A DNA stretch of 64,000 nt from Actinernus sp. WN-2022 (Eukaryota; Cnidaria; Anthozoa; Actiniaria; Actinernidae), in assembly GCA_030867875.1 (NCBI GenBank), contig JAOWCC010000553.1:583001-647000 (forward strand). The letters are read 5' to 3'. The notes beneath the pieces are model-generated. The model made no database searches. It saw only the letters and a program-made list of their open reading frames with translations, and had not been told where the DNA came from. Position numbers and translations under genes: made by a program. This document shows positions 3,738 through 29,400 of this stretch, piece by piece (position 1 is the first letter of the stretch; each line of letters starts with the position of its first letter).

Positions 3738-4715
3738 CTAAAGATAGCTGATCTTTGAAATATAGTTTACGGAGCGCACTTTTAAAAGCTTTAAAAGTTG
3801 GCTGCTTTTTTACACCAAGTGTTAAATTGTTCCACAGTTGTACGGCCGTTACATTAAAGGATCTGCCTCCTTCCGTTACATGTTTATACCTGGGACAATT
3901 AAAGTTATAGTTGCAATACCGAGTATTTCTTGCATGGACGTCACATGACTGTTCGATTTAAGGCTTTCCATCAGATACTCTGGAACACTGTGCATAGTTC
4001 GTTTATAAACTAGAGAACATGTAGCTATTTTGGCCTCGTTGTAAAACGGCAACCATTGCAATTTATTGAATATCAATACAGAAGATGATCTCGGCTCTGC
4101 ATCAAGTATTACTCTTGCAGCTCTCTTCTGTAATCTTAGGATTCTCGTTAAATTTTCCTTACTGCAATTATGCCATACTACATTAACGTAATTCATAATA
4201 CTGTAGGTCTAACCATTGCATTGTAATATAATATTCGCTATTTGAATGGTACACAAGACTTTATCTTGTTTAGGACTCCGATTCTCTGTTATAGCTTAAT
4301 TTTTACACAGTTTGTCGACATGACAAGAGAAAGTCAGCTCACTGTCGACTTCTAAGCCGAGTAACCGCGCCGACTCAACCTGTTCGAGAATATTGCCATT
4401 TGCTGTAGCTAAACCAAGCTGTTTGTCTTCGTGGGAGCTATCTTCGTAGCCAAATGCTTGCCAGTAATTAAGAGAGTCTTGGTTTCTTTTTTCATTCATA
4501 GACAATTTGTTGGTATTTGCCCAGTTTTCCACATCATGCCATGCTCTACTTAACGAGCTCTGTAGGTTACGAATGGCACATACATCAGCTGAGGAGGTCA
4601 ACGTCATGTCGTCAGCGTATAGATCAACATCCACATCCGTAGATTGAATATGAAGAGGGAGATTGTTGATAAACACGATGAATAGCAGCGATTCCAGAAC
4701 GCTCCCTTGAGGCAT
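3738..4715 (-). pseudogene. decayed non-LTR reverse transcriptase
   Basis: The upstream piece (4296-4715) holds the RT motif PQGSVL followed by LYADD, the catalytic YADD box. The second piece (3876-4196, other frame) matches the usual LINE C-terminal region (RLQKRAARVILD, LQWLP). Reading continues past this ORF to about 3738 with a typical tail (LWNNL, then FKSALRKLYF). The pieces are separated by frameshifts, and everything before the QGSVL region is missing, so this is a 5'-truncated dead copy. The clade is uncertain; CR1/L2-like or Jockey-like is likely. It belongs to a different family from the LINEs at 25313 and 61706. Confidence 0.8.
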
Positions 4716-9506: not shown

Positions 9507-9636
9507 TTGAAGGGCTGTGTGCAAAAAGGGCATAAGTGACTCTTGATCACATTCTAAATTCTCCCTTAGAAAACAAAGAAATTAAAGGAGAATTTAAAAT
9601 CTGATCAGGAAACACTTTTTGCACACAGCCCTTCAA
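9507..9636. mobile_element. 130-bp hairpin MITE, copy A
   Basis: Near-perfect inverted ends TTGAAGGGCTGTGTGCAAAA and its complement enclose a second inverted pair (GATCACATTCTAAATTCTCC against the complement). The whole folds as a long hairpin. A second copy lies at 58172-58314. It interrupts the older PolB relic at the same junction as the 12.1-kb element. Confidence 0.85.
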
Positions 9637-9703
9637 TTTGAGTAGTATAGTCGGAGTCAGAATTATACCCGTTTTTTCTTGTACAACAAAAATCTAACAC
9701 AGT

Positions 9704-10029
9704 GTTCAATATTTTGCACATTTAGCATTTATGACACCCCCTTAGAGCTTTTGCTCGCTATATTACCCCTTTTTAGCCCCAAAACATCTATTTGACGCCG
9801 AATTGCCTCACAAGGTATTTGTTCACCCCCATGTTCGACGTGGGGTTGCAGAGTTGTTGCTTTCGGTCATTTTTCATAATACCCGCTAATTCAGCGTTCA
9901 ATATTTCCTACACCCATTTAGCCATTTATGACACCACCTTCGATCTTTTTGTTAGCTATATTACCCCTTTTAGCCCACAAAACGTCTATTTGACACCGAA
10001 TTGCAGCACGAAAGGTATTATTTACCCCT
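9704..10029 (+). repeat. subterminal direct repeat pair, left arm
   Basis: Two diverged copies of a unit of about 130 bp (9704-9830 and 9896-10029) share TTCAATATTT, ATTTATGACACC, GCTATATTACCCCTTTT and CTATTTGAC with CCGAATTGC. They lie just inside the terminus, where binding sites for replication or integration proteins would be expected; that role is inference. Confidence 0.75.
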
Positions 10030-10189
10030 AGTTTAGATATGGTGGCACGGCGTTTTTTTTTTTTCAAGGCGGTCATCTTTTGCCAGGACTTCTAACTCAC
10101 ATCCCCCATTTCTTTTTGTCAACGAATGCCACAAGATCAACCCACCGTAGGATATGGTCACATGAATACCGGAGAAAATTTACATTCCC

Positions 10190-10524
10190 CCCAATCTATT
10201 AGAGCCTGATGAATATATACGAATATGCAGCCGCATGGATAAAACCACTTGTATATGGTTGATGCTTGGGAAGGATTACGAGTGTAAAAGAAAGCGATAC
10301 AATACGGAATACTGTGCCCAACACAATTATCAGATAAGGAAGGGAAGCAGATCGCCAATACCCTGTTCGAACTGCGGGATTGGGTGTCGTACTAGTTGTG
10401 GACTTTGCTCGAGGTGTGGACAGAAAACGAGCCAACGCCTCAAAGATAAAAAACGTTATACCAAGGTTCGCTTTGCAAAGGTGTTATTGGAATTGAAAAA
10501 GAACTACCCCCCAATCGATTAGAG
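10190..10524 (+). repeat. short direct repeat flanking the small ORF, left arm
   Basis: CCCCCCAATCTATTAGAG (about 10188-10205) and CCCCCCAATCGATTAGAG (about 10506-10523) bracket the 95-aa ORF; the second copy overlaps that ORF's last codons and stop. Possible roles are a duplicated gene-end or gene-start signal. The mirror pair is in the right arm. Confidence 0.6.
10235..10522 (+). CDS. small Cys-rich protein (left arm)
   Basis: This 95-aa ORF begins MDKTTC and contains about a dozen cysteines, concentrated in CSNCGIGCRTSCGLCSRCG, which resembles a zinc-ribbon or zinc-knuckle cluster. The rest is basic and the C-terminus is KKNYPPID. It lies 65 bp upstream of the PolB start on the same strand, so it may be co-expressed. 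I do not recognise the family. An accessory replication role, such as DNA binding or a terminal-protein partner, is only a possibility. The copy in the other arm encodes the identical protein. Because both arms are nearly identical throughout, that identity alone does not prove selection. The start is the first ATG; an upstream exon cannot be excluded. Confidence 0.55.
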   Translation: MDKTTCIWLMLGKDYECKRKRYNTEYCAQHNYQIRKGSRSPIPCSNCGIGCRTSCGLCSRCGQKTSQRLKDKKRYTKVRFAKVLLELKKNYPPID

Positions 10525-10587
10525 TAAGATATGACTTTCCACCGAACATTTAGAGCTATCCAACCATATGAGTATTGACAACGGAAA

Positions 10588-13500
10588 ATGGTTACCCTCC
10601 AAGAACTACGCAGGACGGCAAAACAGTTTGGAATTCTAGGTTTCTCTAAGTTGCGAAAACACGAACTCATTCATGCAATAGATTCAGCTTTGGCTAGCGA
10701 AGAACGTAGTAGGTATGGAAGACACATCGAGACAGGTAGGTTTCCAGCTCTTCGAGGAGATCCAGAAAATCCACACAAACGTGCTCAACGTTCGCGAGAA
10801 CTCAAACAACTTAGGGAGGATGCAATAGCAAGTCTACGTGCTAAAACTGTTGCAGCCCAGATGGAAGCTAAACCTCAAATGCGTGTACCACATCTGCGAC
10901 GAATAGGACGGCGACTCCGACAAGATCCTCGCAGCGAATCACTACCACGCAGCATCATTCGAGAGGCAGCTACTATTCTCGATGAGAGAGATGGTACGCT
11001 TGAGGGAGAAGAAAAAGGCAGACGTACGATCCGGTGGCGATTTTTCAAAGGTGTAGCGGGAGATTTGACACATAGGATCATGGAGAAATTGACTGCAAAC
11101 GTCGAAACCAGTTTCTATCTACGCTACAGCTATGTCTATCGCATTCGCAACGTCAAGGATGGGCGCGTAATGATATTTTCCAAGACAGGTTCAGGATCTC
11201 CATGGATAAATATTCTAGGCGATGCGGCGGGATGGATAAACAACAAGGAGATTGCCAGATTGAATCCCGATAACATAGAGCGACCCGACACTCAGTGGGT
11301 ATTCGTACGTTGGATCCACGTGGATATCAAAGTCATAATCGATCGTCAACCTTTGTTGTGTACCGGCCCACTACCACAATGGCTTAGACATAGGAAGGGG
11401 ATGTTTTCCCTCGACAAATACTACGACAATCTATGCCTTTGGCGATGCCTTGCTATATACAAAGGATCTTGTGTAGACAAGTGCAATACCGCAGCTCGAA
11501 AACTAGCCCAAGAGTTCTATCAATTGGTAGCTCCTATACGAGATACCCCCAAAACTTCACTAGACCAGTTGGATAAGATCGAGTTGCACTTTGGGATAGG
11601 CATTTGCGTGTACGAACCTACGGAGGATGGAGCTTGGCATCTGACACGACATGAAGCTCACTACAAACATACGATGACGATTGGTATATACGAGGGACAC
11701 GCCTTCTATATCAAGAAAGTTTGGCAACTCGGAGATCTCTACATCTGTAATGATTGCAAACAACGATTCACGAAAGCCTCAAATCTTCAACGTCATGCAG
11801 ATCGTTGTAGTCGTGGTGAAACGAAGATAGTTTGTGCAGGAGAAAAAATCATAGCCCCACAATCTGCATTCGAAAAAGCATTCTGGCCAGTGAACAACGC
11901 TAGCAAGAAAGCCCTACGTTGGTTGAAACGCGAATCGGAAAGAATCGAACGACATATTCATCACGCAGCTTGTGGTCATGGTGGAGAACACCTGATAGAA
12001 GGAGCACTCGTCGATGGCTATGAACCTACTTCCAAAACAATCTTTCAATTTCATGGGTGCTACTTTCACGGATGCCCAAAATGTACGAAAGACAAATCAT
12101 GGGGTAAGAATTTATATCGTAAAACTTGTGCAAGAACATCAAAGCTACGATTGGCCGGATATACAGTGGTGGAGGCTTGGGAATGCTCGACGAAGAAGCC
12201 CAACGAACCAATTCCAACTCCGATTCAAACCGCTTATCCACACGCGATAGTATATGATTTCGAAGCCTATCTCGATACGACGAAAGGAAGACAACCAACA
12301 GACCATCTAATCATCGAAAACGTACATGTTCCTATATCAGTATCGATTGCCGACACATACGATCGAACACCAACTTTTATCTGTCGATTCGATCCAAAAG
12401 AACTCATAACCGCCTTTGTCGAAGAACTTCAACGAAGAGCGAAAGTAATCCAAGAAGTTGTCATCGAACAGTTTTGTCCTAAGACACATGAATTCTCTTT
12501 CGACACCCTACCAAAAGAACAACAAATGAAAATCAATGAATGGGCAAATCAAGTTCCCGTATTAGGATTCAACTCCGGGCGATACGATTTGAATTTGATC
12601 AGAAACGATTTCGTGGAATCCATTGCTGACACATGCAAGAAAGTCAGAGTAGCAAAGAAAGCCAACACCACTATGTTTCTCTTAACCCCAGAATTTCGTT
12701 TCCTCGATGTGATGAATTATCTTGGACCAGGTACTTCCTATGAACGTTGGATCACTGCATATGGATGCGAGTTTCAAAAGAGTTTCTTCCCATACGAGTG
12801 GTTTGATTCTCCAGACAAATTGGATCACATCGGATTGCCTGATTATCGAGAGTGGGGATCAAAGCTAAAAGGGCAACACCTACTATCTAGGGAAGAGTTC
12901 GATGATTGTAAGCGTACCTTCCACGATAAGGGAATGAAGATCTTTGCAGACTGGCTACGATACTATAACAACTTGGATGTAATTCCATTCCTAGAGGCTC
13001 TCGAGAAGATGCGCAATTTCTACCACGAAAAAGATGTAGACATACTAAAAGACGCAGTATCCATTCCAGGAGTCTCACTACAGTTCCTACTTCGAGGTAG
13101 TGTAGAACGTGGTGCTAAGTTGTATGCCCCATGCGAGGAGGCTTATCATATGCTCAAAGGTGCAATCGTTGGTGGTCCAAGTATAATATTCACTAGACGT
13201 CATGAAGCAGGAATAACTAAGATTCGTAGTCATCAGGGTGGAACCAAAAAGTGTCGCAAGATTCTTGGATACGATGCCAATGCTCTATATCTTTCTACTA
13301 TGGCACGCGAAATGCCTTGTGGGAAAGAAAAGGTTGTGCACTATGAAGAACCAGATCAAGCCGCCAAAGAACTTGTCGAACGTCTACGTAATGGAACGTG
13401 GTTTGGATATGCAGAGGTAGATATCGAGATACCTAAAAAGCTATGGAAGAAATTCGAGGAGATGCCACCCTTCTTCTACAATAGAGAAATTCCAGATGAA

Positions 13501-14559
13501 GCAATCCCATCACAAATGTCATCCTGCCTTGAGAAGACTGGTCGAAAGAGATCTAATACCAAGAAGTTAGTTGGATGTCTCGCCGGAAAAAAGTGGTTAC
13601 TCTATGCTCCTCTACTACATTGGTATCTTGATCATGGAGCGATTATAACTGCGGGCTATCGCACAATAGACTATGAACCAAAAAAAGTATTTGAATGGTT
13701 TGTCGACCAAGTCACCGAAGCACGAAGGACAGGAGATGTAGACAAAGGTAAAGCCCTACTTGCAGATGTATTCAAGTTACTTGGAAATAGCGCCTATGGA
13801 AAGTTGATCGAAGATTTGGGACGCCAAACAAATGTCACCTATACCAAGGATGAGAAGGTCGTTGACAAAGCGTTGCGTAGTGTTTGGTTTTCGGACTTAG
13901 AGGAAATTGGTGACGCATATGAACTCGAGAGTAGAAAGAATCAGATCCAAATCAAACGACCTTTCCAAGTAGGTATCGCTGTATATCAATTCGCCAAGCT
14001 TCGTATGCTCGAATTCTACTACGACTTCCTCGACAAGTATGTCGCTAGGAAAGATTTCGAATACATACAGATGGATACTGATAGCGCGTACATTGCAATT
14101 TCGGGAAACAGCATTGACGAAGTTGTACGATCAGAACTGCGAGAGGATTTCGCCACCCACAGAAATGATTGGTTAGCTTGGGACAAATGGAGCGGTCGCA
14201 CACCAGGACTCTTCAAACTTAAACTCGAAGGACAACGAGCTATTGCACTATGTTCCAAAGCTTGGTATGTTGATGGAGGCGATACTCGCAAATATTCCAC
14301 CAAAGGGATGTCGAAGAGGCACAACGAAATTACGTGGGATCGATTCGATGAAGCCTTATGTGGTAGTATCGATAAAGCAGAAAATCGAGGATTTCGTTTA
14401 CTACCAGAAGGTATGGCAACCTACACACAACATAAACTTGGGCTTTCAGCCTACTACGATAAAAGGCGAGTACTTCCAGATGGAATCCACACCGAGCCCA
14501 TAGAATACAGCCTTCGAAAGGACTACCTTCACGATCGATACGCTCCCGAAGATATTTGA
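10588..14559 (+). CDS. protein-primed-type DNA polymerase B, left-arm copy
   Basis: A 1323-aa family-B DNA polymerase. Exonuclease motifs: D557-F-E559, N662 with D667, and Y793xxxD797. Polymerase motifs: A at D896-ANALY901, B at K1063xxxN1067S with Y1070G, and C at D1163-T-D-S1166. The spacing between Exo III and A (about 100 aa) and between A and B (about 160 aa) leaves room for the TPR1 and TPR2 insertions of protein-primed enzymes. The N-terminal half has a C283/H371 pair in DNLCLWRCLA and EGHAFYIKKV, possibly a degenerate OTU-like fold, a C2HC finger (C387, C390, H403, C407), and a Cys/His region FHGCYFHGCPKC (488-499) followed by VVEAWEC (527-533), typical of large eukaryotic selfish PolBs. 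The predicted role is copying the element itself. All catalytic residues are present and there are no frameshifts. The start is the first ATG, 65 bp after the small ORF. Confidence 0.93.
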   Translation: MVTLQELRRTAKQFGILGFSKLRKHELIHAIDSALASEERSRYGRHIETGRFPALRGDPENPHKRAQRSRELKQLREDAIASLRAKTVAAQMEAKPQMRVPHLRRIGRRLRQDPRSESLPRSIIREAATILDERDGTLEGEEKGRRTIRWRFFKGVAGDLTHRIMEKLTANVETSFYLRYSYVYRIRNVKDGRVMIFSKTGSGSPWINILGDAAGWINNKEIARLNPDNIERPDTQWVFVRWIHVDIKVIIDRQPLLCTGPLPQWLRHRKGMFSLDKYYDNLCLWRCLAIYKGSCVDKCNTAARKLAQEFYQLVAPIRDTPKTSLDQLDKIELHFGIGICVYEPTEDGAWHLTRHEAHYKHTMTIGIYEGHAFYIKKVWQLGDLYICNDCKQRFTKASNLQRHADRCSRGETKIVCAGEKIIAPQSAFEKAFWPVNNASKKALRWLKRESERIERHIHHAACGHGGEHLIEGALVDGYEPTSKTIFQFHGCYFHGCPKCTKDKSWGKNLYRKTCARTSKLRLAGYTVVEAWECSTKKPNEPIPTPIQTAYPHAIVYDFEAYLDTTKGRQPTDHLIIENVHVPISVSIADTYDRTPTFICRFDPKELITAFVEELQRRAKVIQEVVIEQFCPKTHEFSFDTLPKEQQMKINEWANQVPVLGFNSGRYDLNLIRNDFVESIADTCKKVRVAKKANTTMFLLTPEFRFLDVMNYLGPGTSYERWITAYGCEFQKSFFPYEWFDSPDKLDHIGLPDYREWGSKLKGQHLLSREEFDDCKRTFHDKGMKIFADWLRYYNNLDVIPFLEALEKMRNFYHEKDVDILKDAVSIPGVSLQFLLRGSVERGAKLYAPCEEAYHMLKGAIVGGPSIIFTRRHEAGITKIRSHQGGTKKCRKILGYDANALYLSTMAREMPCGKEKVVHYEEPDQAAKELVERLRNGTWFGYAEVDIEIPKKLWKKFEEMPPFFYNREIPDEAIPSQMSSCLEKTGRKRSNTKKLVGCLAGKKWLLYAPLLHWYLDHGAIITAGYRTIDYEPKKVFEWFVDQVTEARRTGDVDKGKALLADVFKLLGNSAYGKLIEDLGRQTNVTYTKDEKVVDKALRSVWFSDLEEIGDAYELESRKNQIQIKRPFQVGIAVYQFAKLRMLEFYYDFLDKYVARKDFEYIQMDTDSAYIAISGNSIDEVVRSELREDFATHRNDWLAWDKWSGRTPGLFKLKLEGQRAIALCSKAWYVDGGDTRKYSTKGMSKRHNEITWDRFDEALCGSIDKAENRGFRLLPEGMATYTQHKLGLSAYYDKRRVLPDGIHTEPIEYSLRKDYLHDRYAPEDI

Positions 14560-14570
14560 GATATCGTAAC

Positions 14571-15383
14571 GAAAGCAAAGCAACAAGCAAAGCAAAGCAG
14601 CAGACAAAAGCAAAGCAACGAGCAAAGCAAAGCAACGAACGAAAGCAAAGCAACGAGCAAAGCAAAGCAGCAGACAAAAGCAAAGCAAAGCAACGAACGA
14701 AAGCAAAGCAACGAACGAAAGCAAAGCAACGAACGAAAGCAAAGCAACAGGCAAAGCAAAGCAACGAACGAAAAGCAAAAGCAACGAGCAAAGCAACGAG
14801 CAAAGCAAAACAACAAACAAAGCAAAGCAACGAACGAAAAGCAAAACAACGAACGAAAAGCAAAACAACGAACAAGAGCAAAGCAACGAACGAAAGCAAA
14901 GCAACGAACGAAAGCAAAGCAACGAACGAAAGCAAAGCAACGAACGAAAGCAAAGCAACGAAAGCAAAGCAACGAGCAAAGCAAAGCAGCAGACAAAAGC
15001 AAAGCAAAGCAACGAACGAAAGCAAAGCAACGAACGAAAGCAAAGCAACGAACAGGAGCGAAGCAACAGACAAAATCAAAGCAACGAACGAAAGCAAAGC
15101 AACGAGCAAAGCAAAGCAGCAGACAAAAGCAAAGCAAAGCAACGAACGAAAGCAAAGCAACGAACGAAAGCAAAGCAACGAACGAAAGCAAAGCAACGAA
15201 CAGGAGCGAAGCAACAGGCAAAGCAAAGCAACGAACGAAAGCAAAGCAACGAGCAAAGCAAAGCAACGAACAGGAGCAAAGCAACGAACGGAAGCAAAGC
15301 AACGAACGAAAGCAAAGCAACGAGCAAAGCGACGAGCAAAGCAAAGCAACGAACAGGAGCAAAGCAACGAACGAAAGCGAAAA
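14571..15383 (+). repeat. T-depleted tandem array, left arm
   Basis: About 810 bp built from variants of an 18-bp unit, chiefly GCAAAGCAACGAACGAAA, GCAAAGCAGCAGACAAAA, GCAAAGCAACGAACAGGA and shorter GCAAAGCAACGAGCAAA forms. The plus strand has essentially one T in the body (near 15071). It starts about 12 bp after the PolB stop. All stop codons contain T on this strand and A on the other, so ORFs stay open in every frame without being genes. Confidence 0.95.
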
Positions 15384-15636
15384 TAAGTGCCAACGCATAG
15401 ACACCGACTAAAAGAAAGAAAACAACTACCGACGTATTGGCGCCAATCAATAGATAGGAAAACGAATACCAACACACAGACGCCACAAAGAAAAAGAAAT
15501 CGGAAAACCATAGGATTTCCAAGATCGCAGGGCACCTACATACGTACAAGGGCCACCACAAGAACCCAACAAAGTCCACCACAAGAACCCAACAAGGTCA
15601 CCACAAGAATCCAACGAGGTCCACCACGAGGTCCAG
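15384..15636. other. unique central spacer of the palindrome
   Basis: The only non-mirrored part of the element. It contains a perfect 12-bp palindrome, ATTGGCGCCAAT (15435-15446), and near its right end three to four copies of a 22-23-bp unit, CCACCACAAGAACCCAACAA (about 15550-15636). No credible ORF. It may mark the junction at which the dimer formed. Confidence 0.8.
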
Positions 15637-16824
15637 CTTTGCTCCTGTTCGTTGCTTTGCTTTGCTCGTCGCTTTGCTCGTTGCTTTGCTTTCGTTCGTT
15701 GTTTTGCGTTTCGTTCGTTGCTTTGCTTTGCTTTTGTCTGCTGCTTTGCTTTGCTCGTTGCTTTGCTTTCGTTCGTTGCTTTTGTCTGTTGCTTCGCTCC
15801 TGTTCGTTGCTTTGCTTTCGTTCGTTGCTTTGCTTTCGTTCGTTGCTTTGCTTTGCTTTGCTTTTGTCTGCTGCTTTGCTTTGCTCTTGTTCGTTGTTTT
15901 GCTTTTCGTTCGTTGTTTTGCTTTTCGTTCGTTGTTTTGCTTTTCGTTCGTTGCTTTGCTTTGTTTGTTGTTTTGCTTTGCTCGTTGCTTTGCTCGTTGC
16001 TTTTGCTTTTCGTTCGTTGCTTTGCTTTGCCTGTTGCTTTGCTTTCGTTCGTTGCTTTGCTTTGCTTTCGTTGCTTTGCTTTGCTTGTTGCTTTGCTTTG
16101 CCTGTTGCTTCGCTCCTGTTCGTTGCTTTGCTTTCGTTCGTTGCTTTGCTTTCGTTCGTTGCTTTGCTTTGCTTTTGTCTGCTGCTTTGCTTTGCTCGTT
16201 GCTTTGCTTTCGTTCGTTGCTTTGCTTTGCTCGTTGCTTTGCTTTTGTCTGCTGCTTTTCTTTGCCCGTTGCTTTGCTTTCGTTCGTTGTTTTGCTTTTG
16301 TCTGCTGCTTTGCTCGTTGCTTTTGCTTTTCGTTCGTTGCTTTGCTTTGCCTGTTGCTTTGCTTTCGTTCGTTGCTTTGCTCGTTGCTTTGCTTTCGTTC
16401 GTTGCTTTGCTTTTGTCTGCTGCTTTGCTTTGCTCGTTGCTTTGCTCGTTGCTTTTGCTTTTCGTTCGTTGCTTTGCTTTGCCTGTTGCTTTGCTTTCGT
16501 TCGTTGCTTTGCTTTCTTTAGTTGCTTTGCTCGTTGCTTTTGCTTTTCGTTCGTTGCTTTGCTTTGCCTGTTGCTTCGCTCCTGTTCGTTGCTTTGCTTT
16601 CGTTCGTTGCTTTGCTTTCGTTCGTTGCTTTGCTTTGCTTTTGTCTGCTGCTTTGCTTTGCTCGTTGCTTTGCTCGTTGCTTTGCTTTCGTTCGTTGCTT
16701 TGCTTTTGTCTGTTGCTTCGCTCCTGTTCGTTGCTTTGCTTTCGTTCGTTGCTTTGCTTTCGTTCGTTGCTTTGCTTTGCTTTTGTCTGCTGCTTTGCTT
16801 TGCTCGTTGCTTTGCTTTCGTTAC
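15637..16824 (-). repeat. T-depleted tandem array, right arm (inverted)
   Basis: The inverted counterpart of the left array, about 1190 bp, built on TTTCGTTCGTTGCTTTGC in plus orientation and almost free of A. It is about 375 bp longer than the left array and its order of variants differs, so the two arrays have changed copy number independently. The long ORFs crossing it are compositional. Confidence 0.95.
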
Positions 16825-16830
16825 GATATC

Positions 16831-19800
16831 TCAAATATCTTCGGGAGCGTATCGATCGTGAAGGTAGTCGTTTCGAAGGCTGTATTCTATGGGCTCGGTG
16901 TGGATTCCATCTGGAAGTACTCGCCTTTTATCGTAGTAGGCTGAAAGCCCAAGTTTATGTTGTGTGTAGGTTGCCATACCTTCTGGTAGTAAACGAAATC
17001 CTCGATTTTCTGCTTTATCGATACTACCACATAAGGCTTCATCGAATCGATCCCACGTAATTTCGTTGTGCCTCTTCGACATCCCTTTGGTGGAATATTT
17101 GCGAGTATCGCCTCCATCAACATACCAAGCTTTGGAACATAGTGCAATAGCTCGTTGTCCTTCGAGTTCAAGTTTGAAGAGTCCTGGTGTGCGACCGCTC
17201 CATTTGTCCCAAGCTAACCAATCATTTCTGTGGGTGGCGAAATCCTCTCGCAGTTCTGATCGTACAACTTCGTCAATGCTGTTTTCCGAAATTGCAATGT
17301 ACGCGCTATCAGTATCCATCTGTATGTATTCGAAATCTTTCCTAGCGACATACTTGTCGAGGAAGTCGTAGTAGGATTCGAGCATTCGAAGCTTGGCGAG
17401 TTGATATACAGCGATACCTACTTGGAAAGGTCGTTTGATTTGGATCTGATTCTTTCTACTCTCGAGTTCATATGCGTCACCAATTTCCTCTAAGTCCGAA
17501 AACCAAACACTACGCAACGCTTTGTCAACGACCTTCTCATCCTTGGTATAGGTGACATTTGTTTGGCGTCCCAAATCTTCGATCAACTTTCCATAGGCGC
17601 TATTTCCAAGTAACTTGAATACATCTGCAAGTAGGGCTTTACCTTTGTCTACATCTCCTGTCCTTCGTGCTTCGGTGACTTGGTCGACAAACCATTCAAA
17701 TACTTTTTTTGGTTCATAGTCTATTGTGCGATAGCCCGCAGTTATAATCGCTCCATGATCAAGATACCAATGTAGTAGAGGAGCATAGAGTAACCACTTT
17801 TTTCCGGCGAGACATCCAACTAACTTCTTGGTATTAGATCTCTTTCGACCAGTCTTCTCAAGGTAGGATGACATTTGTGATGGGATTGCTTCATCTGGAA
17901 TTTCTCTATTGTAGAAGAAGGGTGGCATCTCCTCGAATTTCTTCCATAGCTTTTTAGGTATCTCGATATCTACCTCTGCATATCCAAACCACGTTCCATT
18001 ACGTAGACGTTCGACAAGTTCTTTGGCGGCTTGATCTGGTTCTTCATAGTGCACAACCTTTTCTTTCCCACAAGGCATTTCGAGTGCCATAGTAGAAAGA
18101 TATAGAGCATTGGCATCGTATCCAAGAATCTTGCGACACTTTTTGGTTCCACCCTGATGACTACGAATCTTAGTTATTCCTGCTTCATGACGTCTAGTGA
18201 ATATTATACTTGGACCACCAACGATTGCACCTTTGAGCATATGATAAGCCTCCTCGCATGGGGCATACAACTTAGCACCACGTTCTACACTACCTCGAAG
18301 TAGGAACTGTAGTGAGACTCCTGGAATGGATACTGCGTCTTTTAGTATGTCTACATCTTTTTCGTGGTAGAAATTGCGCATCTTCTCGAGAGCCTCTAGG
18401 AATGGAATTACATCCAAGTTGTTATAGTATCGTAGCCAGTCTGCAAAGATCTTCATTCCCTTATCGTGGAAGGTACGCTTACAATCATCGAACTCTTCCC
18501 TAGATAGTAGGTGTTGCCCTTTTAGCTTTGATCCCCACTCTCGATAATCAGGCAATCCGATGTGATCCAATTTGTCTGGAGAATCAAACCACTCGTATGG
18601 GAAGAAACTCTTTTGTAACTCGCATCCATATGCAGTGATCCAACGTTCATAGGAAGTACCTGGTCCAAGATAATTCATCACATCGAGGAAACGAAATTCT
18701 GGGGTTAAGAGAAACATAGTGGTGTTGGCTTTCTTTGCTACTCTGACTTTCTTGCATGTGTCAGCAATGGATTCCACGAAATAGTTTCTGATCAAATTCA
18801 AATCGTATCGCCCGGAGTTGAATCCTAATACAGGAACTTGATTTGCCCATTCATTGATTTTCATTTGTTGTTCTTTTGGTAGGGTGTCGAAAGAGAATTC
18901 ATGTGTCTTAGGACAAAACTGTTCGATGACAACTTCTTGGATTACTTTCGCTCTTCGTTGAAGTTCTTCGACAAAGGCGGTTATGAGTTCTTTTGGATCG
19001 AATCGACAGATAAAAGTTGGTGTTCGATCGTATGTGTCGGCAATCGATACTGATATAGGAACATGTACGTTTTCGATGGTTAGATGGTCTGTTGGTTGTC
19101 TTCCTTTCGTCGTATCGAGATAGGCTTCGAAATCATATACTATCGCGTGTGGATAAGCGGTTTGAATCGGAGTTGGAATTGGTTCGTTGGGCTTCTTCGT
19201 CGAGCATTCCCAAGCCTCCACCACTGTATATCCGGCCAATCGTAGCTTTGATGTTCTTGCACAAGTTTTACGATATAAATTCTTACCCCATGATTTGTCT
19301 TTCGTACATTTTGGGCATCCGTGAAAGTAGCACCCATGAAATTGAAAGATTGTTTTGGAAGTAGGTTCATAGCCATCGACGAGTGCTCCTTCTATCAGGT
19401 GTTCTCCACCATGACCACAAGCTGCGTGATGAATATGTCGTTCGATTCTTTCCGATTCGCGTTTCAACCAACGTAGGGCTTTCTTGCTAGCGTTGTTCAC
19501 TGGGCAGAATGCTTTTTCGAATGCAGATTGTGGGGCTATGATTTTTTCTCCTGCACAAACTATCTTCGTTTCACCACGACTACAACGATCTGCATGACGT
19601 TGAAGATTTGAGGCTTTCGTGAATCGTTGTTTGCAATCATTACAGATGAAGAGATCTCCGAGTTGCCAAACTTTCTTGATATAGAAGGCGTGTCCCTCGT
19701 ATATACCAATCGTCATCGTATGTTTGTAGTGAGCTGCATGTCGTGTCAGATGCCAAGCTCCATCCTCCGTAGGTTCGTACACGCAAATGCCTATCCCAAA

Positions 19801-20802
19801 GTGCAACTCGATCTTATCCAACTGGTCTAGTGAAGTTTTGGGGGTATCTCGTATAGGAGCTACCAATTGATAGAACTCTTGGGCTAGTTTTCGAGCTGCG
19901 GTATTGCACTTGTCTACACGAGATCCTTTGTATATAGCAAGGCATCGCCAAAGGCATAGATTGTCGTAGTATTTGTCGAGGGAAAACATCCCCTTCCTAT
20001 GTCCAAGCCATTGTGGTAGTGGGCCGGTACCCAACAAAGGTTGACGATCGATTATGACTTTGATATCCACGTGGATCCAACGTACGAATACCCACTGAGT
20101 GTCGGGTCGCTCTATGTTATCGGGATTCAATCTGGCAATCTCCTTGTTGTTTATCCATCCCGCCGCATCGCCTAGAATATTTATCCATGGAGATCCTGAA
20201 CCTGTCTTGGAAAATATCATTACGCGCCCATCCTTGACGTTGCGAATGCGATAGACATAGCTGTAGCGTAGATAGAAACTGGTTTCGACGTTTGCAGTCA
20301 ATTTCTCCATGATCCTATGTGTCAAATCTCCCGCTACACCTTTGAAAAATCGCCACCGGATCGTACGTCTGCCTTTTTCTTCTCCCTCAAGCGTACCATC
20401 TCTCTCATCGAGAATAGTAGCTGCCTCTCGAATGATGCTGCGTGGTAGTGATTCGCTGCGAGGATCTTGTCGGAGTCGCCGTCCTATTCGTCGCAGATGT
20501 GGTACACGCATTTGAGGTTTAGCTTCCATCTGGGCTGCAACAGTTTTAGCACGTAGACTTGCTATTGCATCCTCCCTAAGTTGTTTGAGTTCTCGCGAAC
20601 GTTGAGCACGTTTGTGTGGATTTTCTGGATCTCCTCGAAGAGCTGGAAACCTACCTGTCGCGATGTGTCTTCCATACCTACTACGTTCTTCGCTAGCCAA
20701 AGCTGAATCTATTGCATGAATGAGTTCGTGTTTTCGCAACTTAGAGAAACCTAGAATTCCAAACTGTTTTGCCGTCCTGCGTAGTTCTTGGAGGGTAACC
20801 AT
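16831..20802 (-). CDS. protein-primed-type DNA polymerase B, right-arm copy
   Basis: This 1323-aa polymerase mirrors the left-arm copy, with the same exonuclease and polymerase motifs and no stop or indel. Comparing the two genes by eye I find 19 substitutions in 3969 coding bases: 17 change an amino acid and 2 are silent (P657 and R1139). Changes include R/L, W/C, C/Y, G/E and K/E, but none falls on a catalytic residue listed for the left copy. The nearest to a motif is D/Y shortly after Exo II (RNDFVES against RNYFVES). The excess of replacement changes is about what neutral drift would give, so there is no sign of purifying selection since the arms parted. It faces the left copy tail to tail across the arrays. 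Confidence 0.93.
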   Translation of the reverse strand: MVTLQELRRTAKQFGILGFSKLRKHELIHAIDSALASEERSRYGRHIATGRFPALRGDPENPHKRAQRSRELKQLREDAIASLRAKTVAAQMEAKPQMRVPHLRRIGRRLRQDPRSESLPRSIIREAATILDERDGTLEGEEKGRRTIRWRFFKGVAGDLTHRIMEKLTANVETSFYLRYSYVYRIRNVKDGRVMIFSKTGSGSPWINILGDAAGWINNKEIARLNPDNIERPDTQWVFVRWIHVDIKVIIDRQPLLGTGPLPQWLGHRKGMFSLDKYYDNLCLWRCLAIYKGSRVDKCNTAARKLAQEFYQLVAPIRDTPKTSLDQLDKIELHFGIGICVYEPTEDGAWHLTRHAAHYKHTMTIGIYEGHAFYIKKVWQLGDLFICNDCKQRFTKASNLQRHADRCSRGETKIVCAGEKIIAPQSAFEKAFCPVNNASKKALRWLKRESERIERHIHHAACGHGGEHLIEGALVDGYEPTSKTIFQFHGCYFHGCPKCTKDKSWGKNLYRKTCARTSKLRLAGYTVVEAWECSTKKPNEPIPTPIQTAYPHAIVYDFEAYLDTTKGRQPTDHLTIENVHVPISVSIADTYDRTPTFICRFDPKELITAFVEELQRRAKVIQEVVIEQFCPKTHEFSFDTLPKEQQMKINEWANQVPVLGFNSGRYDLNLIRNYFVESIADTCKKVRVAKKANTTMFLLTPEFRFLDVMNYLGPGTSYERWITAYGCELQKSFFPYEWFDSPDKLDHIGLPDYREWGSKLKGQHLLSREEFDDCKRTFHDKGMKIFADWLRYYNNLDVIPFLEALEKMRNFYHEKDVDILKDAVSIPGVSLQFLLRGSVERGAKLYAPCEEAYHMLKGAIVGGPSIIFTRRHEAGITKIRSHQGGTKKCRKILGYDANALYLSTMALEMPCGKEKVVHYEEPDQAAKELVERLRNGTWFGYAEVDIEIPKKLWKKFEEMPPFFYNREIPDEAIPSQMSSYLEKTGRKRSNTKKLVGCLAGKKWLLYAPLLHWYLDHGAIITAGYRTIDYEPKKVFEWFVDQVTEARRTGDVDKGKALLADVFKLLGNSAYGKLIEDLGRQTNVTYTKDEKVVDKALRSVWFSDLEEIGDAYELESRKNQIQIKRPFQVGIAVYQLAKLRMLESYYDFLDKYVARKDFEYIQMDTDSAYIAISENSIDEVVRSELREDFATHRNDWLAWDKWSGRTPGLFKLELEGQRAIALCSKAWYVDGGDTRKYSTKGMSKRHNEITWDRFDEALCGSIDKAENRGFRLLPEGMATYTQHKLGLSAYYDKRRVLPDGIHTEPIEYSLRNDYLHDRYAPEDI

Positions 20803-20867
20803 TTTCCGTTGTCAATACTCATATGGTTGGATAGCTCTAAATGTTCGGTGGAAAGTCATATCTTACT

Positions 20868-21155
20868 CTAATCGATTGGGGGGTAGTTCTTTTTCAATTC
20901 CAATAACACCTTTGCAAAGCGAACCTTGGTATAACGTTTTTTATCTTTGAGGCGTTGGCTCGTTTTCTGTCCACACCTCGAGCAAAGTCCACAACTAGTA
21001 CGACACCCAATCCCGCAGTTCGAACAGGGTATTGGCGATCTGCTTCCCTTCCTTATCTGATAATTGTGTTGGGCACAGTATTCCGTATTGTATCGCTTTC
21101 TTTTACACTCGTAATCCTTCCCAAGCATCAACCATATACAAGTGGTTTTATCCAT
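20868..21155 (-). CDS. small Cys-rich protein (right arm)
   Basis: The mirror copy of the 95-aa Cys-rich ORF, identical in protein sequence, 65 bp upstream of the right-arm PolB start on the minus strand. Cysteines cluster in CSNCGIGC and CGLCSRCG, consistent with one or two zinc-binding knuckles. Function unknown; a replication accessory or regulatory protein is possible from position only. Confidence 0.55.
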   Translation of the reverse strand: MDKTTCIWLMLGKDYECKRKRYNTEYCAQHNYQIRKGSRSPIPCSNCGIGCRTSCGLCSRCGQKTSQRLKDKKRYTKVRFAKVLLELKKNYPPID

Positions 21156-21361
21156 GCGGCTGCATATTCGTATATATTCATCAGGCTCTAATAGATTGGG
21201 GGGAATGTAAATTTTCTCCGGTATTCATGTGACCATATCCTACGGTGGGTTGATCTTGTGGCATTCATTGACAAAAAGAAATGGGGGATGTGAGTTAGAA
21301 GTCCTGGCAAAAGATGACCGCCTTGAAAAAAAAAAAAACGCCGTGCCACCATATCTAAACT

Positions 21362-21687
21362 AGGGGTAAATAATACCTTTCGTGCTGCAATTCGGTGTCA
21401 AATAGACGTTTTGTGGGCTAAAAGGGGTAATATAGCTAACAAAAAGATCGAAGGTGGTGTCATAAATGGCTAAATGGGTGTAGGAAATATTGAACGCTGA
21501 ATTAGCGGGTATTATGAAAAATGACCGAAAGCAACAACTCTGCAACCCCACGTCGAACATGGGGGTGAACAAATACCTTGTGAGGCAATTCGGCGTCAAA
21601 TAGATGTTTTGGGGCTAAAAAGGGGTAATATAGCGAGCAAAAGCTCTAAGGGGGTGTCATAAATGCTAAATGTGCAAAATATTGAAC
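21362..21687 (-). repeat. subterminal direct repeat pair, right arm
   Basis: Mirror of the left-arm pair (units about 21561-21687 and 21362-21495), with the same conserved blocks. Confidence 0.75.
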
Positions 21688-21757
21688 ACTGTGTTAGATT
21701 TTTGTTGTACAAGAAAAAACGGGTATAATTCTGACTCCGACTATACTACTATTTGAG

Positions 21758-23425: not shown

Positions 23426-25312
23426 ATGATGATGTTTCTATGGCCTCTTGTAATACTTGTATATAACATAACAGCAAACCAAACTATGATGGCTCAGCAG
23501 AGCAGTTCATGCTTGGACTGGACTAGATGTATATTGTGCCAAGAAATCACAGCAGAACCGCTTCAGTGTCCAGGTAACCTAGGAAGATCTGACATCGAGA
23601 GTGGGACAGGATACCATACACAGGCAAAAAATATTCTACAATTTAAAGAGCTTGGAAGTTTGCCAATACAGATAGATATTACAAAGTTAGATGAAGGAGG
23701 AGGAATTGCAACAACGCTTATACAACGAAATGCAAAATGGCACAAAACCTGCAAATACAAATTCAGCAATCTGAAATTGCAAAGAGCAAACAAACGAAGA
23801 AGTCAAGAAGAGCCAGCTGATATTCCATGTTCCAAATTCACAAGGTTAAGCTGTGATGGTACTACTTCCAAAGCCAAAAATAGTTGCTTCTTCTGTGGTG
23901 GTACACAGGAAACTCTTCATCAAGCTTCAACCTTCGATATAGATGCAAGAGTTAAGGAATGCGCGCTCCAGTTACAAGACAGGGTGCTACTTGCAAACCT
24001 AAGCTCAGGAGATATGATTTCACAAGAAGCGGTATATCATGCGAAATGCTTGGTATCACTTTATAACAAAGCAGGGAGAATACATCAGGATACTGGAAAC
24101 AGAGAAGAAAAGATAAATCAGGGTATCGCCTTGGCACAGTTAGTTGCATACATAGAGGAAACGCGTTCTGAGTCGTCCGTAGATAGTGTTCCTGTGTTTC
24201 GGCTGGCAGAGCTCACCCATATGTATTCCGTCCGTCTTCAACAGCTTGGAGATGATATATCTGGCCCAATTCACTCTACTGATTTAAAGGATAGGATTTT
24301 GGCTAATGTTCCAGGTCTCCAGGCTCACAAGCAAGGACGAGACATTCTGCTGGCTTTCGATGATGATATCGGCATGGCTTTAAAACAGGCATGTGCTCGT
24401 GATTTTGATGAAGAAGCAATGACCCTGGTTAAGGCTACCAATATAATTCGTCGGGACATGTTGAACTTGAAGACCAAGTTTAACGGGACATTTGAGAACA
24501 ATTGTCAACAAACATCTGTCCCACAGTCTTTAAAAACATTGGTAGGAATGATTTTAGGGGGAGCAGATATCAAGAGCCAATCCAGCGACAACATTGAAAG
24601 TCAAACTACGCTAAGTATATCCCAACTGATGCTTTTCAATGCTAGTAAACGATGTCGCAGCAGTGGAACAACAAGAACTTCACATTACCACTCTAGAGAT
24701 CGCGAGCCACCAATGCCCATTTACTTAGGTCTTATGACCCATGCAGAAACAAGAAAGCGTACGCTTGTTGATAAACTCTACAATCTGGGATTGTCAATAT
24801 CATATGACCGAGTGTTGGAGCTTTCCACAGACTTGGAAAACAGCATGTGCAGCCTCTTTGAATCTGAAGGAGTTGTATGTCCGCCAAAGCTTAATAAAGG
24901 GGTATTCACAACCGGAGCTGTGGACAATATTGATCACAACCCGAGTTCAGTTACTGCTCAAGGTGCTTCCCATGGAACAGGCATATCGCTGTTTCAACAT
25001 CCAACCAATGATGCCCCTGGTGAAAAACGTGATGTTGTTGGCATTGACAATCAAGCTTCGAGGACCAAGCGTCTTGCTCAACTTCCATATTATTACCCAT
25101 GCGTAGAACCAGTAATTCTCCCCAAGAAAGAACCAGCAGTTCCTGTACTCCAATGCCCTTTTGCTAGTAGTTGCCCTGACATGCTGCATGCTTTTAGTGT
25201 ATAATACAAATGGCTTGACCACGTCAGAGATAAGCTTTACCAAGAACTATCGGAAGATACTTTTGATATGTCATGGGCAGCTTTTCACGCAAGCCAGCTA
25301 CCGCCAAATCAG
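23426..25312 (+). pseudogene. Academ-like transposase gene, 5' part
   Basis: A 592-codon ORF followed by an in-frame TAA (25202-25204), after which the same frame stays open (YKWLDHVRDKLYQELSED, then SWAAFHASQLPPNQ) until the LINE at 25313. The N-terminal region has Cys/His clusters suggesting zinc binding: CILCQE with LQCP, WHKTCKYKF, CFFCGG and YHAKC. The rest is mostly helical without a motif I can name. It resembles the N-terminal half of a widespread uncharacterised invertebrate transposon protein. An earlier or later start is possible: MAQQSSS lies about 20 residues in, and TTTGACAATGCAG just upstream could be a splice acceptor. It is dead in this copy. Confidence 0.75.
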
Positions 25313-25387
25313 TCAGCGGTCAGCGGAGCAAGATGGCGGCTTTTTTTCTGAGCTCCATTCAGCCTAGTATTTCCTGCCCATATTTCC

Positions 25388-26257
25388 TTGTCTAGTAATG
25401 TTTTGTGTCGTCCTTCTATTATGGCCAAGAGTAATTTAACTATCGAGAGAATTGAAGAGCTACTGGACCGAAAGCTCCAGCCCTTGAGAAGCAAGATTGA
25501 AAAGCTCCAGCCACTGATGAACAAGATCGATGAATTAAACGCGACTGTGAAAGGAATGGAGAATTCGCTCACTTTTCTAAGCAACAAATACGACGAGCTG
25601 CTTATGAACGTCAAAAGATTAGAAGGGGAGACGAAAGAGGCTGCAAAAGAATCTGCAAGATTGAAAGCCGAAGTACTTAAGACATCAAATGAACTTATCA
25701 ACCTCAAGGATGAAAATAACAACTTGGAACAGTACTCGCGTCGAGACAGTCTAGAGATTCGAGGAATCCCTTACCAGTGCGGAGAAATTACGAACGATAT
25801 TGTCATGAATCTTGGAAGACTGATTGGAGTAGAGTTGAAAGAAGATGACATTTCTATAAGCCATCGCCTATCTGGTACAAGGCCATTGTCAAGCCGCGAG
25901 CAAGACAGCCGGGATCCTGCTATTATAGTAAAATTCGTCCGCCGAGGAACAAGAGACAGATTCTATAAAGCCAAAAGGGAGCTTCGAGACAAAACCACAA
26001 AAGATCTTGGATTCATAAGAATCGCCGAACAAAAGGTCTTCATCTCAGAAAGCTTAACACAGAAGAACAAAGCGTTATTTAAAACCTGCCTTAAAGCCAA
26101 ATATGACCTGAACTTCAAGTTTATCTGGACCTCTGCTGGGAAGATCCTGCTTCGTAAAGATAATAGTAGTCCTGCAAGACTTATATCCAGTAATAAGGAT
26201 CTGAAGAGGCTGATTGAAATTGAAACTCCCAATGTCCCAGATGAAGATGGTGAGTGA
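25388..26257 (+). CDS. LINE ORF1 protein
   Basis: A 289-aa nucleic-acid-binding chaperone-type protein. Residues about 15-120 are charged heptads predicted to form a coiled coil (LQPLRSKIEKLQPLMNKI and following). Then YSRRDSLEIRGIP and DISISHRL mark the RRM-like domain of the L1 ORF1 / transposase-22 type, and IRIAEQKVFISESLT opens the C-terminal domain. In this family such proteins trimerise and coat the LINE RNA. The ATG at 25388 (MSSNVLCR) is the longest choice; MAKSNLTIERIEELL at 25421 is an equally likely start. It lies 199 bp upstream of ORF2. Confidence 0.85.
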   Translation: MSSNVLCRPSIMAKSNLTIERIEELLDRKLQPLRSKIEKLQPLMNKIDELNATVKGMENSLTFLSNKYDELLMNVKRLEGETKEAAKESARLKAEVLKTSNELINLKDENNNLEQYSRRDSLEIRGIPYQCGEITNDIVMNLGRLIGVELKEDDISISHRLSGTRPLSSREQDSRDPAIIVKFVRRGTRDRFYKAKRELRDKTTKDLGFIRIAEQKVFISESLTQKNKALFKTCLKAKYDLNFKFIWTSAGKILLRKDNSSPARLISSNKDLKRLIEIETPNVPDEDGE

Positions 26258-26456
26258 AACCCGAACAGCCACAAATTACCTTAACCCTAAACCATCACTT
26301 GGGTCAAATAAACTCAAGCCCTCAGTGCCTCTAACGGAGCTGCAGATTAGTGAACAGTCATATGCAAATTGCTCCTATTCCAACTCATTACTTGATCTAA
26401 ATTATGGACATATTAAAGTAAGAGTATGATATTTATTAACTCTACCCTAAATACTC

Positions 26457-29400
26457 ATGACAAAATGTCCTAAATGTAGAAAGAAAGTTCTTGAGCACTG
26501 CAAAGCAATCCAGTGTGATCATTGCCATAACTGGTATCACTTAAAATGTTCACAATTGTCAAGTAAGATGTATGACTATTTTTCATTCACCGGTGATCTC
26601 TGGTTATGTGCAAATTGTAAAAATGAGGTTTTTCCTTTCCAAAATTTAACAAATTCTGAGCTCCTAGATCTTTCCTTTAATTCCAATACTAGATGTCTTT
26701 GCTCTGCTCAAATGGCTAAAACTAAGCTAGACTTATTACCTAGATTTGATATTCTAGAATCTGTTAGCAATGTGCCTCACCTTTCTGATTTGGATGCCGA
26801 CCAACACGTTCCTTCGCAAACTAATTTTAAGTATTACTCAATACATGACTTCCATAATGATAAAGAAATTAATAACTGCTTTGCAAATAACCCTTTTTCG
26901 GTTTTACATTGTAACATTAGAAGTCTTGCTGCAAACCATGATAATTTTATTTGCATGTTAACAGAATTAAATCACTCTTTCTCTGTTATTGGCTTAAGTG
27001 AAACAAAAATTAAGACAGATCATGAACAGTTACTTAACACACAAATTCCAGGTTATGAATTTATTTCTCAACCAAGTCTCTCTAATGCTGGAGGAGTTGG
27101 ATTTTTCGTCCATGGACATCACAAATTCACTGTTAGAAAAGATTTATCAACCTCTAAGGAAGAGTATGAATCACTGTGGATTGAAATTCAAAATCAAACA
27201 GACCGTAATATAATTTGTGGTGTCATTTATAGACATCCCAATAGTACTAATCTTGATACATTTATGAATTATCTAAATCCAATCATTGATAAAATCAGTA
27301 AAGAAAACAAGTATTGTACTATTATGGGTGATTTCAACATTAATTTACTGAATTTTGAAACTCATTCAGCAACAGATGATTTTATTAATACTCTAGGGTC
27401 ATATTTCTTTTTTCCCCAAATTCTACAACCAACAAGATTAACTGATCATTCAGCCACCCTTATTGATAATATATTCTTTAATTCAGCTGAACATCTCACA
27501 ATGAGTGGAAATATCTTACATGACCTCACTGACCATCTTCCTAACTTTTTGATTATTAATAAACTCTCCAATCTTCCAAGTAATATCAAAATATACAAGA
27601 GAGATTATTCACACTTTAATGAATCTGTATTAATTGAAGAAGTTAAGGCTGTTGATTGGAGTTCACAGCTGCCAGAGACTAATGATGTTAATGAAATATT
27701 TGACTCGTTTCATTCTAAAATATCATACATCATTGATAAACACATCCCGGTAAGACAGCTAAGTAAGAAAAAAATTAAACAAATGGCTAAACCATGGATC
27801 ACCCCTGCTGTTAGAGTGTCTATGAATATAAAGAATAATCTGTTTAAGAAGTACCTTAAAACTGGCTCAGCATATTATCATTCTAAATATAAATCTTATA
27901 GAAACAAATTAAATCACCTACTAAGGATTAGCAAAAAATCATACTATAATAATTACTTCAATAACAATAGTAATAATATAAAAAATATATGGAAAGGAAT
28001 CAAACAGATCATAACGCTTAAACCCAGAATAAGTCATATACCAGCAAAGATTGTCAAAGATAATGTCGAACTAGTTGATACTAAATCTATTGCAAATGCT
28101 TTTAATGAATTCTTTGCTAACATAGGTAACGAGCTAGCCAATCTTATTCCACCAATAAATAAATCACCACTTAATTATCTAGCTCCTCAAAAACCTAACT
28201 GTTTTTATCTTTTTCCAACTACATCTGAAGAAATTGAGGAAGTAATTACTACCTTAAATCCAAATAAAGCAAGTGGACCCTTTAGTATCTCAACAAAAGT
28301 GCTGAAACTTTTGAAAAAGTTTCTATCAAAGCCATTAGAAATTTTATTCAATTGTTCTTTTGACACTGGTCTCGTTCCTGATAACTTCAAACTCGCCAGA
28401 GTAATTCCTGTTTATAAAAAAGGATCACAAACCAATCTTAGCAACTATCGTCCTATTTCATTGCTATCTATATTCAACATAATCTTAGAAAAGCTGATGT
28501 TTAAGAGATTAATGAATTATATTGATAAACAAAATATCTTATATACCAAACAGTTTGGCTTTCGTCAAAAGCATTCTACAGTTCAAGCAATTTTATCAAT
28601 TACTGATAAAATACAAAAATCTATTGAAGATGGTTGTTACTCTTGTGGAATCTTTTTAGATTTTAGTAAAGCCTTTGACACCGTAAATCATGAGATTCTA
28701 ATAATGAAACTTGAACACTATGGCTTTAGAGGAATTACAAAAGACTGGTTTTGCTCCTACCTCAAAGACAGAAAACAAATTGTGTCAATTGGAAATGTTG
28801 TGTCAGATTATAAACAAATTTCCTGTGGGGTCCCACAAGGATCGGTCCTTGGACCACTCTTGTTTCTTCTATATATCAATGATTTTAATAAATCTTCTAA
28901 CATATTTGATTTTCATCTATTTGCTGACGACTCTAATTTATTTTATGCCAATAAGAATTTATCAACACTTGAATTAACTGTTAATAAAGAACTACAAGAA
29001 GTTTACAATTGGCTGTGTGTTAATAAACTGTCTTTAAATATCACTAAATCTAATTTTGTTATTTTTCACCCGCCACAAAAAAAGTTAAATTACATAGTTA
29101 ACTTGATAATCGATAAACAGTCACTAAAGAATGAAAAAAATATAAAATATTTAGGTATAATGATAGACTCGCATTTAAATTGGAAATCTCAAGTTAATTA
29201 CATAACAAAGAAAATTAAAAGAAGTATTGGTATATTATCTAAAATTCGATACTTTGTCAATTTAAACATTCTTATCAACCTATATTATTCTTTAATTTAT
29301 CCATTTTTGATCTATGGAATAGTTGCTTGGGGAAATACATATATCTCAACTCTAAATCCAATTATTATAATACAAAAAAGAGCCATGAGAATCATAACCT

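What the first reader, a model, noticed from the sequence alone, without database searches (positions are those of the whole stretch)
9641..21750. Palindromic 12.1-kb element made of two PolB genes and nothing else recognisable
Seen: inverted arms of about 5.7 and 6.1 kb, exact matching termini starting AG, 5-bp ATTTG duplications, and an intact 1323-aa PolB in each arm, tail to tail. Known: Polintons and adintoviruses carry PolB with integrase, packaging ATPase and capsid genes; linear plasmids carry PolB with terminal repeats. Inferred: a PolB-only mobile replicon. Snap-back copying during protein-primed replication of a half-element would yield exactly this tail-to-tail dimer. With no integrase visible, mobilisation must be in trans or by an unknown route.
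Basis: partly seen in the sequence, partly recalled or inferred. Interest (0 to 1): 0.93.

Follow-up and report, generated by a model that had tools for sequence, protein, structure and literature searches.

The report
Mirror-image Maverick lacking its integrase
A family of mobile DNA elements carries its genes twice, as a mirror image, and its two halves are much more alike within a copy than between copies, so they are probably recopied from each other whenever the element moves, while insertion is likely done by the integrase of ordinary Maverick elements that sit in the same genome with matching ends.

Summary
The palindrome is real and not a one-off. The window copy (9641-21750) has arms 9641-15365 and 15636-21750, a 5-bp duplication ATTTG and an open 1323-aa protein-primed-type PolB in each arm. 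In its genome, 18 copies with both ends read (10 insertions by flanks) all have 5-bp duplications; nine of the ten carry inverted PolB genes, one a single PolB. Each fully read arm has a small conserved Cys-rich gene; four other loci add an F-box/ankyrin gene. Mavericks of the same genome (integrase, packaging ATPase, PolB) share the end motif, the 5-bp duplication and homologues of all three genes; in the seven fully read insertions no integrase was found outside one nested Maverick.

Arms of one element differ by 0.1-1.0%, different insertions by 0.6-12%. Two sister insertions differ at 26 two-against-two sites, and at all 26 both arms agree; four assembled copies of one insertion show no such sharing. 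So arms seem equalised in the mobile phase, not in the chromosome. PolB is under purifying selection between insertions (dN/dS 0.20-0.27). Best reading: an integrase-less Maverick satellite that likely regenerates its palindrome from one half by fold-back copying and is inserted in trans. Both steps are inferred.

The parts
9636..9640 (.). left 5-bp target-site duplication ATTTG
9641..15365 (+). left arm (5,725 bp)
9641..9646 (+). (AGT)2 end motif; the first 57-58 bp are 81-84% identical to Maverick ends of the same genome
   Evidence: motif described for vertebrate Mavericks in PMC8097293
10235..10522 (+). 95-aa Cys-rich ORF, homologue of Maverick orf145 (49% over 79 aligned positions)
10588..14559 (+). 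PolB, 1323 aa: Rho_N, OTU-like, C2H2 (below cut-off), Vsr-like, exonuclease and phi29-like polymerase domains
14566..15365 (+). array of 18-bp units almost free of T (2 T in 800 bases); in loci E, F/G, L and M an F-box/ankyrin gene follows PolB here
15366..15635 (.). 270-bp centre, unpaired in this copy; present twice in inverted orientation in copies B, C and D
15636..21750 (-). right arm (6,115 bp)
15636..16820 (-). mirror 18-bp array (longer than the left one)
16831..20802 (-). PolB, 1323 aa, right-arm copy; 17 residues differ from the left copy
20868..21155 (-). 95-aa ORF, right-arm copy (mirror coordinates, computed from the PolB offset)
21745..21750 (-). (ACT)2 end motif
21751..21755 (.). 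right 5-bp target-site duplication ATTTG

Best explanation
This is one copy of a family of palindromic Maverick derivatives in which no integrase was found, and it likely replicates with its own protein-primed-type PolB, probably rebuilds its mirror-image form from a single half in each mobile cycle by fold-back copying, and is likely inserted in trans by the integrase of ordinary Mavericks in the same genome. Shown: inverted PolB genes at nine of ten insertions; 5-bp duplication at all ten; shared end motif and gene homology with resident Mavericks; no integrase, ATPase or other tested Maverick protein besides orf145 and F-box/ankyrin in the seven fully read insertions outside one nested Maverick; arms far more alike within than between insertions; at one pair of sister insertions all shared differences are in both arms, while copies of one fixed insertion show none; purifying selection on PolB between insertions. 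Inferred: that PolB primes from the termini with an N-terminal domain as primer; that the palindromic axis acts as the turning point, so that one arm templates the other; that the Maverick integrase recognises the shared ends.
Against: No replication intermediate was seen; fold-back copying is deduced from sequence patterns only, and repair of a full-length panhandle would give the same pattern. The two-against-two test rests on one pair of sister insertions. Trans-integration rests on matching ends and duplication length, not on an assay. One of ten loci (H/I/J) has a single PolB with ~1-kb terminal repeats. Of 40 scored PolB-5' places, 8 were unpaired and 2 lay in the same orientation; these were not followed, so nine of ten may overstate how common palindromes are. 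For three of the ten loci only the ends were read. In the Maverick, orf145 and the F-box/ankyrin gene lie at the end opposite to PolB, so the palindromic arm is not simply one end of the Maverick examined. Several other PolB copies carry an internal gap, frameshift, stop or insert. Arm-arm dN/dS is low in L (0.37) and K (0.28), though on 7 and 4 changes only.
Confidence: 0.72

Rival explanations
1. The palindrome is inherited as a whole; during the mobile phase its two arms pair as a panhandle and mismatch repair or recombination equalises them, as terminal repeats of protein-primed replicons are kept equal. No half-size intermediate exists.
For: The ~0.9-kb repeats of H/I/J differ by only 1.2% and the 233-bp repeats of one Maverick are exactly equal (C235a), so a terminal-repeat equaliser seems to exist. 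The L/M pattern fits it as well.
Against: Equality over 5-6 kb per arm, and a nearly perfect axis in copies B-D, come for free from fold-back copying but need complete repair here.
Confidence: 0.3
2. Arms are kept alike by gene conversion in the chromosome after insertion, as in Y-chromosome palindromes (recalled comparison).
For: Large, nearly identical inverted arms are good substrates.
Against: Four assembled copies of one insertion keep 5 arm-specific differences and show 0 sites equalised in both arms of one copy. Arm-arm changes look close to neutral: 72.5 of 93 nonsynonymous, pooled over five loci.
Confidence: 0.05
3. Assembly artefact: a single-arm element mirrored by chimeric or fold-back reads.
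For: The window centre differs from its sister copies, so part of it may be collapsed.
Against: Arms differ by substitutions, duplications flank the outer ends, unrelated loci on several long contigs show the same form, and an empty site exists for F/G.
Confidence: 0.03
4. Each palindrome is an independent dead-end dimer thrown off by an ordinary Maverick or a single-PolB element, not a lineage of its own.
For: A single-PolB locus (H/I/J) exists.
Against: Palindromic PolBs form one clade apart from two resident Mavericks (UFBoot 100) with purifying selection between loci; L and M are sister insertions of one palindrome. H/I/J falls within that clade, so a single-PolB master of this clade is not fully excluded.
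Confidence: 0.1

Closest known systems
Polinton/Maverick elements (PMC8097293: passages and section 7 read; PMC6431247: passages)
   Same: Protein-primed-type PolB, (AGT)2//(ACT)2 ends, target duplication; the resident Mavericks also carry homologues of the 95-aa and F-box/ankyrin genes.
   Different: No integrase, ATPase or virion-module homologue found; the coding part is inside the inverted repeat; 5-bp and not the 6-bp duplication reported for vertebrate Mavericks (six of six resident Mavericks checked here also have 5 bp).
Adintoviruses (PMC11071296: passages read)
   Same: PolB with N-terminal OTU-like domain; top viral fold match of the N-terminal piece is an adintovirus 2 protein, E 2.6e-13.
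   Different: Adintoviruses carry integrase and hexon genes; no integrase found here, hexon not tested.
[quoted passage not shown]
   Same: Polinton-type PolB retained after loss of the virion module, according to that paper. Palindromic deletion forms of such plasmids are recalled, not checked.
   Different: Those replicate in yeast cytoplasm and are not known as integrated copies with target duplications (recalled).
Bidnaviruses (PMC4061559: passages read)
   Same: A Polinton PolB moved into a compact genome with terminal repeats.
   Different: Parvovirus-like helicase and capsid genes, for which there is no ORF here.
Rolling-hairpin replicons (parvoviruses, poxvirus ends; recalled)
   Same: Copying around a hairpin turns one strand into both arms.
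   Different: No Rep or resolvase gene recognised; the enzyme is a phi29-like PolB.

Membership tests
Polinton/Maverick (autonomous) | protein-primed-type family B DNA polymerase | tested here: met
   PF03175 E 4.1e-14; phi29 polymerase top fold; window PolB 79% identical to PolB of two resident Mavericks. Protein priming itself was not tested.
Polinton/Maverick (autonomous) | retroviral-type (rve) integrase | tested here: not met
   tblastn of the resident Maverick integrase finds none in the window element or the 12 other fetched copies except in the Maverick nested in M; found in both control Mavericks
Polinton/Maverick (autonomous) | packaging ATPase and virion genes | tested here: not met
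   of 12 Maverick proteins other than PolB only orf145 and F-box/ankyrin have homologues, M's nested Maverick aside. The capsid gene itself was not identified by name.
Polinton/Maverick (autonomous) | terminal inverted repeats with (AGT)2//(ACT)2 ends | tested here: met
Polinton/Maverick (autonomous) | 6-bp target-site duplication (as in vertebrate Mavericks) | tested here: not met
   5 bp in 18 of 18 copies and in 6 of 6 resident Mavericks
Adintovirus | OTU-like domain in the PolB N-terminus | tested here: met
Adintovirus | hexon and integrase genes | tested here: inconclusive
   integrase not found; hexon not tested by a hexon model
Cytoplasmic linear plasmid | free linear DNA with protein-capped ends | not testable with these tools
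   only integrated copies are in an assembly
Bidnavirus | SF3 helicase and parvovirus-like capsid gene | tested here: not met
   apart from PolB and frames within the repeat arrays, no ORF of 120 aa or more in the window element

The most novel reading that the evidence does not exclude
A transposon whose entire coding genome has become its terminal inverted repeat: it exists as a self-complementary palindrome that is rebuilt from one half at every transposition by its own protein-primed PolB, using a palindromic axis as the turning point, and it lives as an integrase-stealing satellite of Mavericks.
Probability: 0.5. Interest if true: 0.88.

Novelty: new variant of a known kind. Interest (0 to 1): 0.8.

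Why it matters
A family in which one half seems to template the other at each move gives a sequence-level record of how a Maverick-type element replicates, and makes a half-genome or hairpin intermediate directly testable. It also looks like a satellite that supplies its own polymerase and borrows an integrase, a division of labour that I did not see for Mavericks in the listings and passages of ten paper searches (open-licence full texts only). And it shows a possible route from a virus-like element to a capsid-less replicon.

Tried and rejected
Rejected: the 270-bp loop of the window copy as the original fold-back junction; three sister copies are palindromic almost to the axis. Rejected: four recent transpositions for the four copies with 100% identical 400-bp ends; they share flanks and are one insertion in several assembled copies. 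Rejected: post-insertion gene conversion. Rejected: a third palindromic arm in M; it is a nested Maverick, which also spoils the M- row of the distance table, so M arms were redone.

Led nowhere: PolB relatives in viral contigs, genome contigs and phages; homologues of the 95-aa ORF in the protein database (its Maverick homologue came from the genome). No PDB chain matched the N-terminal piece at E 0.001 or better in Foldseek. No empty site was obtained for the window insertion, nor a genome-wide PolB count (not completed). Pairs at C685:147.6 Mb and C1312:96.56 Mb: both ends were not found. One projected stop shared by both arms in E, F/G, K and L was not placed; it may be the natural end of those PolBs.
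Full report
What is there. In the window, 9641-21750 is bounded by ATTTG on both sides and by perfectly matching inverted ends that begin AGTAGTATAG. Arms align at 4957 of 4979 columns up to the 18-bp arrays (21 substitutions, one indel), and homology continues through the rearranged arrays to 15365/15636, around a 270-bp centre. Both PolB ORFs are open for 1323 codons; 17 of 19 substitutions between them change the residue, against a neutral expectation of 66% (transitions) to 83% (transversions). So since insertion the two copies show no visible constraint.

Relatives in the same genome. The window lies in an unnamed 1.39-Gb assembly. Its first 400 bp has 40 scored matches of 938 candidates. 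The window copy and twelve fetched ones make thirteen bounded copies; 13 of 13 have an exact 5-bp duplication. By flanks they are seven insertions: A-D (window and three more assembled copies; flanks 99.7-100% identical over 1.5 kb), E, F/G, H/I/J, K, L, M. Five further copies with both ends read add three insertions (TSDs TCAGT, ACACC, TCTTT); the C1312:67.49 Mb copy was grouped with its two neighbours by one flank only. That makes 18 of 18 copies and 10 of 10 insertions with 5 bp. Two more inverted pairs could not be bounded. For F/G an uninterrupted site exists on the same contig as copy G: 160 of 160 bases aligned at 98%.

Architecture. Six of the seven fully fetched loci have PolB in both arms, tail to tail. 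K has an internal deletion in one PolB. M has a Maverick nested in one arm. Copy C has an unidentified insert in one PolB. H/I/J has one PolB and terminal repeats of about 1 kb. For the three further insertions the inverted PolB pair is known only. Of 40 scored PolB-5' places (1636 candidates), 24 lie in inverted pairs, 2 belong to F/G, 4 to the H/I/J type (one of these not fetched), 2 are same-strand neighbours and 8 are unpaired; the last ten were not followed. Copies B and D have one mismatch, and C two, in the first 88 bases either side of the axis; loci E, F/G and L have centres that do not pair over 160 to about 1,050 bases in the simple comparison. The 95-aa ORF is without stop in 26 of 26 arm rows, allelic copies included. 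Arms of E, F/G and L and one arm of M also carry an F-box/ankyrin gene between PolB and axis, broken in some arms; the window copy has the array there instead.

Ordinary Mavericks. The 16-base end AGTAGTATAGTCGGAG (up to one mismatch) occurs 1500 times forward and 1494 reverse, against 5 and 11 for the reversed control; the first 100 places were listed. Many of these mark large elements with a pair of motifs at either end; the six whose ends were checked are 12.6-15.7 kb long. C22:106302-121939 encodes an F-box/ankyrin protein, orf145, a TFIIB-like protein, a Pox_A32-type ATPase (E 2.9e-11), an rve integrase (E 1.8e-10) and PolB in two frames. Six of six checked have 5-bp duplications. The best 117 of 6473 integrase candidates were scored; 117 of 117 are uninterrupted and at least 99% identical. 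The window's 95-aa ORF is 49% identical to orf145 over 79 positions, its end 81-84% to Maverick ends over 57-58 bp. Of 12 Maverick proteins other than PolB only orf145 and F-box/ankyrin have homologues in the thirteen copies, the Maverick nested in M aside; two control Mavericks together show all 12.

Mechanism. Arms of one element differ by 0.1-1.0% (L 0.20% and M 0.36% over longer or corrected alignments), the H/I/J repeats by 1.2%. L and M differ by 0.6% or 0.7-0.9%, other loci by 4.6-12% (leaving out the M- row, which is contaminated by the nested Maverick). L and M have different flanks and duplications. Among columns with all four arms present, 26 put both arms of L against both arms of M, 0 are shared by one arm of each, 18 are changes in a single arm. 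If arms were copied faithfully, shared-by-side sites should appear. The control is copies A-D of one insertion: 5 sites are arm-specific in all four, 0 are shared by both arms of one copy, 28 are other patterns. So equalisation appears to happen between insertions and not in the chromosome; the test rests on one sister pair. In a tree of 19 arms (I, J, M and a 207-residue Maverick fragment left out), palindromic PolBs and H form one clade (UFBoot 100) apart from two resident Maverick PolBs and eight outgroups. dN/dS between loci is 0.20-0.27 at dS 0.10-0.33 (12 pairs); between arms it is 2.4 (A), 1.25 (F), 0.73 (E), 0.37 (L) and 0.28 (K), the last two on 7 and 4 changes. So the lineage has depended on PolB. 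Shown are the pattern and its timing. Inferred is the route: PolB copies from an end to the palindromic axis, turns there and copies back, or a hairpin-ended half does the same; the Maverick integrase then joins the shared ends to a target with a 5-bp stagger.

Known or new. It works like a Maverick in replication and ends but fails the integrase and virion-module tests, so it is filed as an integrase-less Maverick derivative, not as an autonomous Maverick. In the listings and passages of ten searches of open full texts I saw no palindromic or integrase-less PolB-bearing Maverick. Six terms such as 'non-autonomous polinton' gave three papers, each holding only 'polinton-derived'. Subscription papers and Repbase were not searched.

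Noticed in passing
L033:201-433, L034:5606-5838: The terminal repeats of the resident Mavericks are themselves inverted (hairpin-like), with the AGTAGTATAG motif at both their outer and inner edge; 154-233 bp in the six elements checked.
   Followed up: partly
G000:C635:3737280-3764974 (L030-L032): A Maverick sits inside one arm of palindromic copy M: 11 of 12 tested Maverick proteins other than F-box/ankyrin match there, integrase and ATPase at 96-97%.
   Followed up: partly
L033:1953-2945 and 547-1224: The Maverick carries TFIIB-like (weak, PF00382 E 0.0017) and F-box/ankyrin genes.
   Followed up: no
L022:5544-6155: The single-PolB locus H/I/J has a TFIIS-type zinc-ribbon ORF after PolB (PF01096 E 1.9e-13).
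   Followed up: no
window 9507-9638: A short hairpin (TTGAAGGGCTGTGTGCAAAAAG inverted repeat, MITE-like) abuts the element's target duplication.
   Followed up: no
window 23426-32768: A LINE (ORF1-like with PF25298, and RT, PF00078) lies between a 592-aa ORF and a 794-aa ORF with a weak DUF6589 match, perhaps one gene split by the insertion.
   Followed up: no
window 4296-4715 and 61874-62917: Fragments of reverse transcriptase (PF00078).
   Followed up: no
window 14566-15365 and 15636-16820: 18-bp arrays with almost no T on one strand (2 T in 800 bases) and almost no A on the mirror; loci E, F, L and K have a milder A-rich, T-poor zone near the axis.
   Followed up: partly
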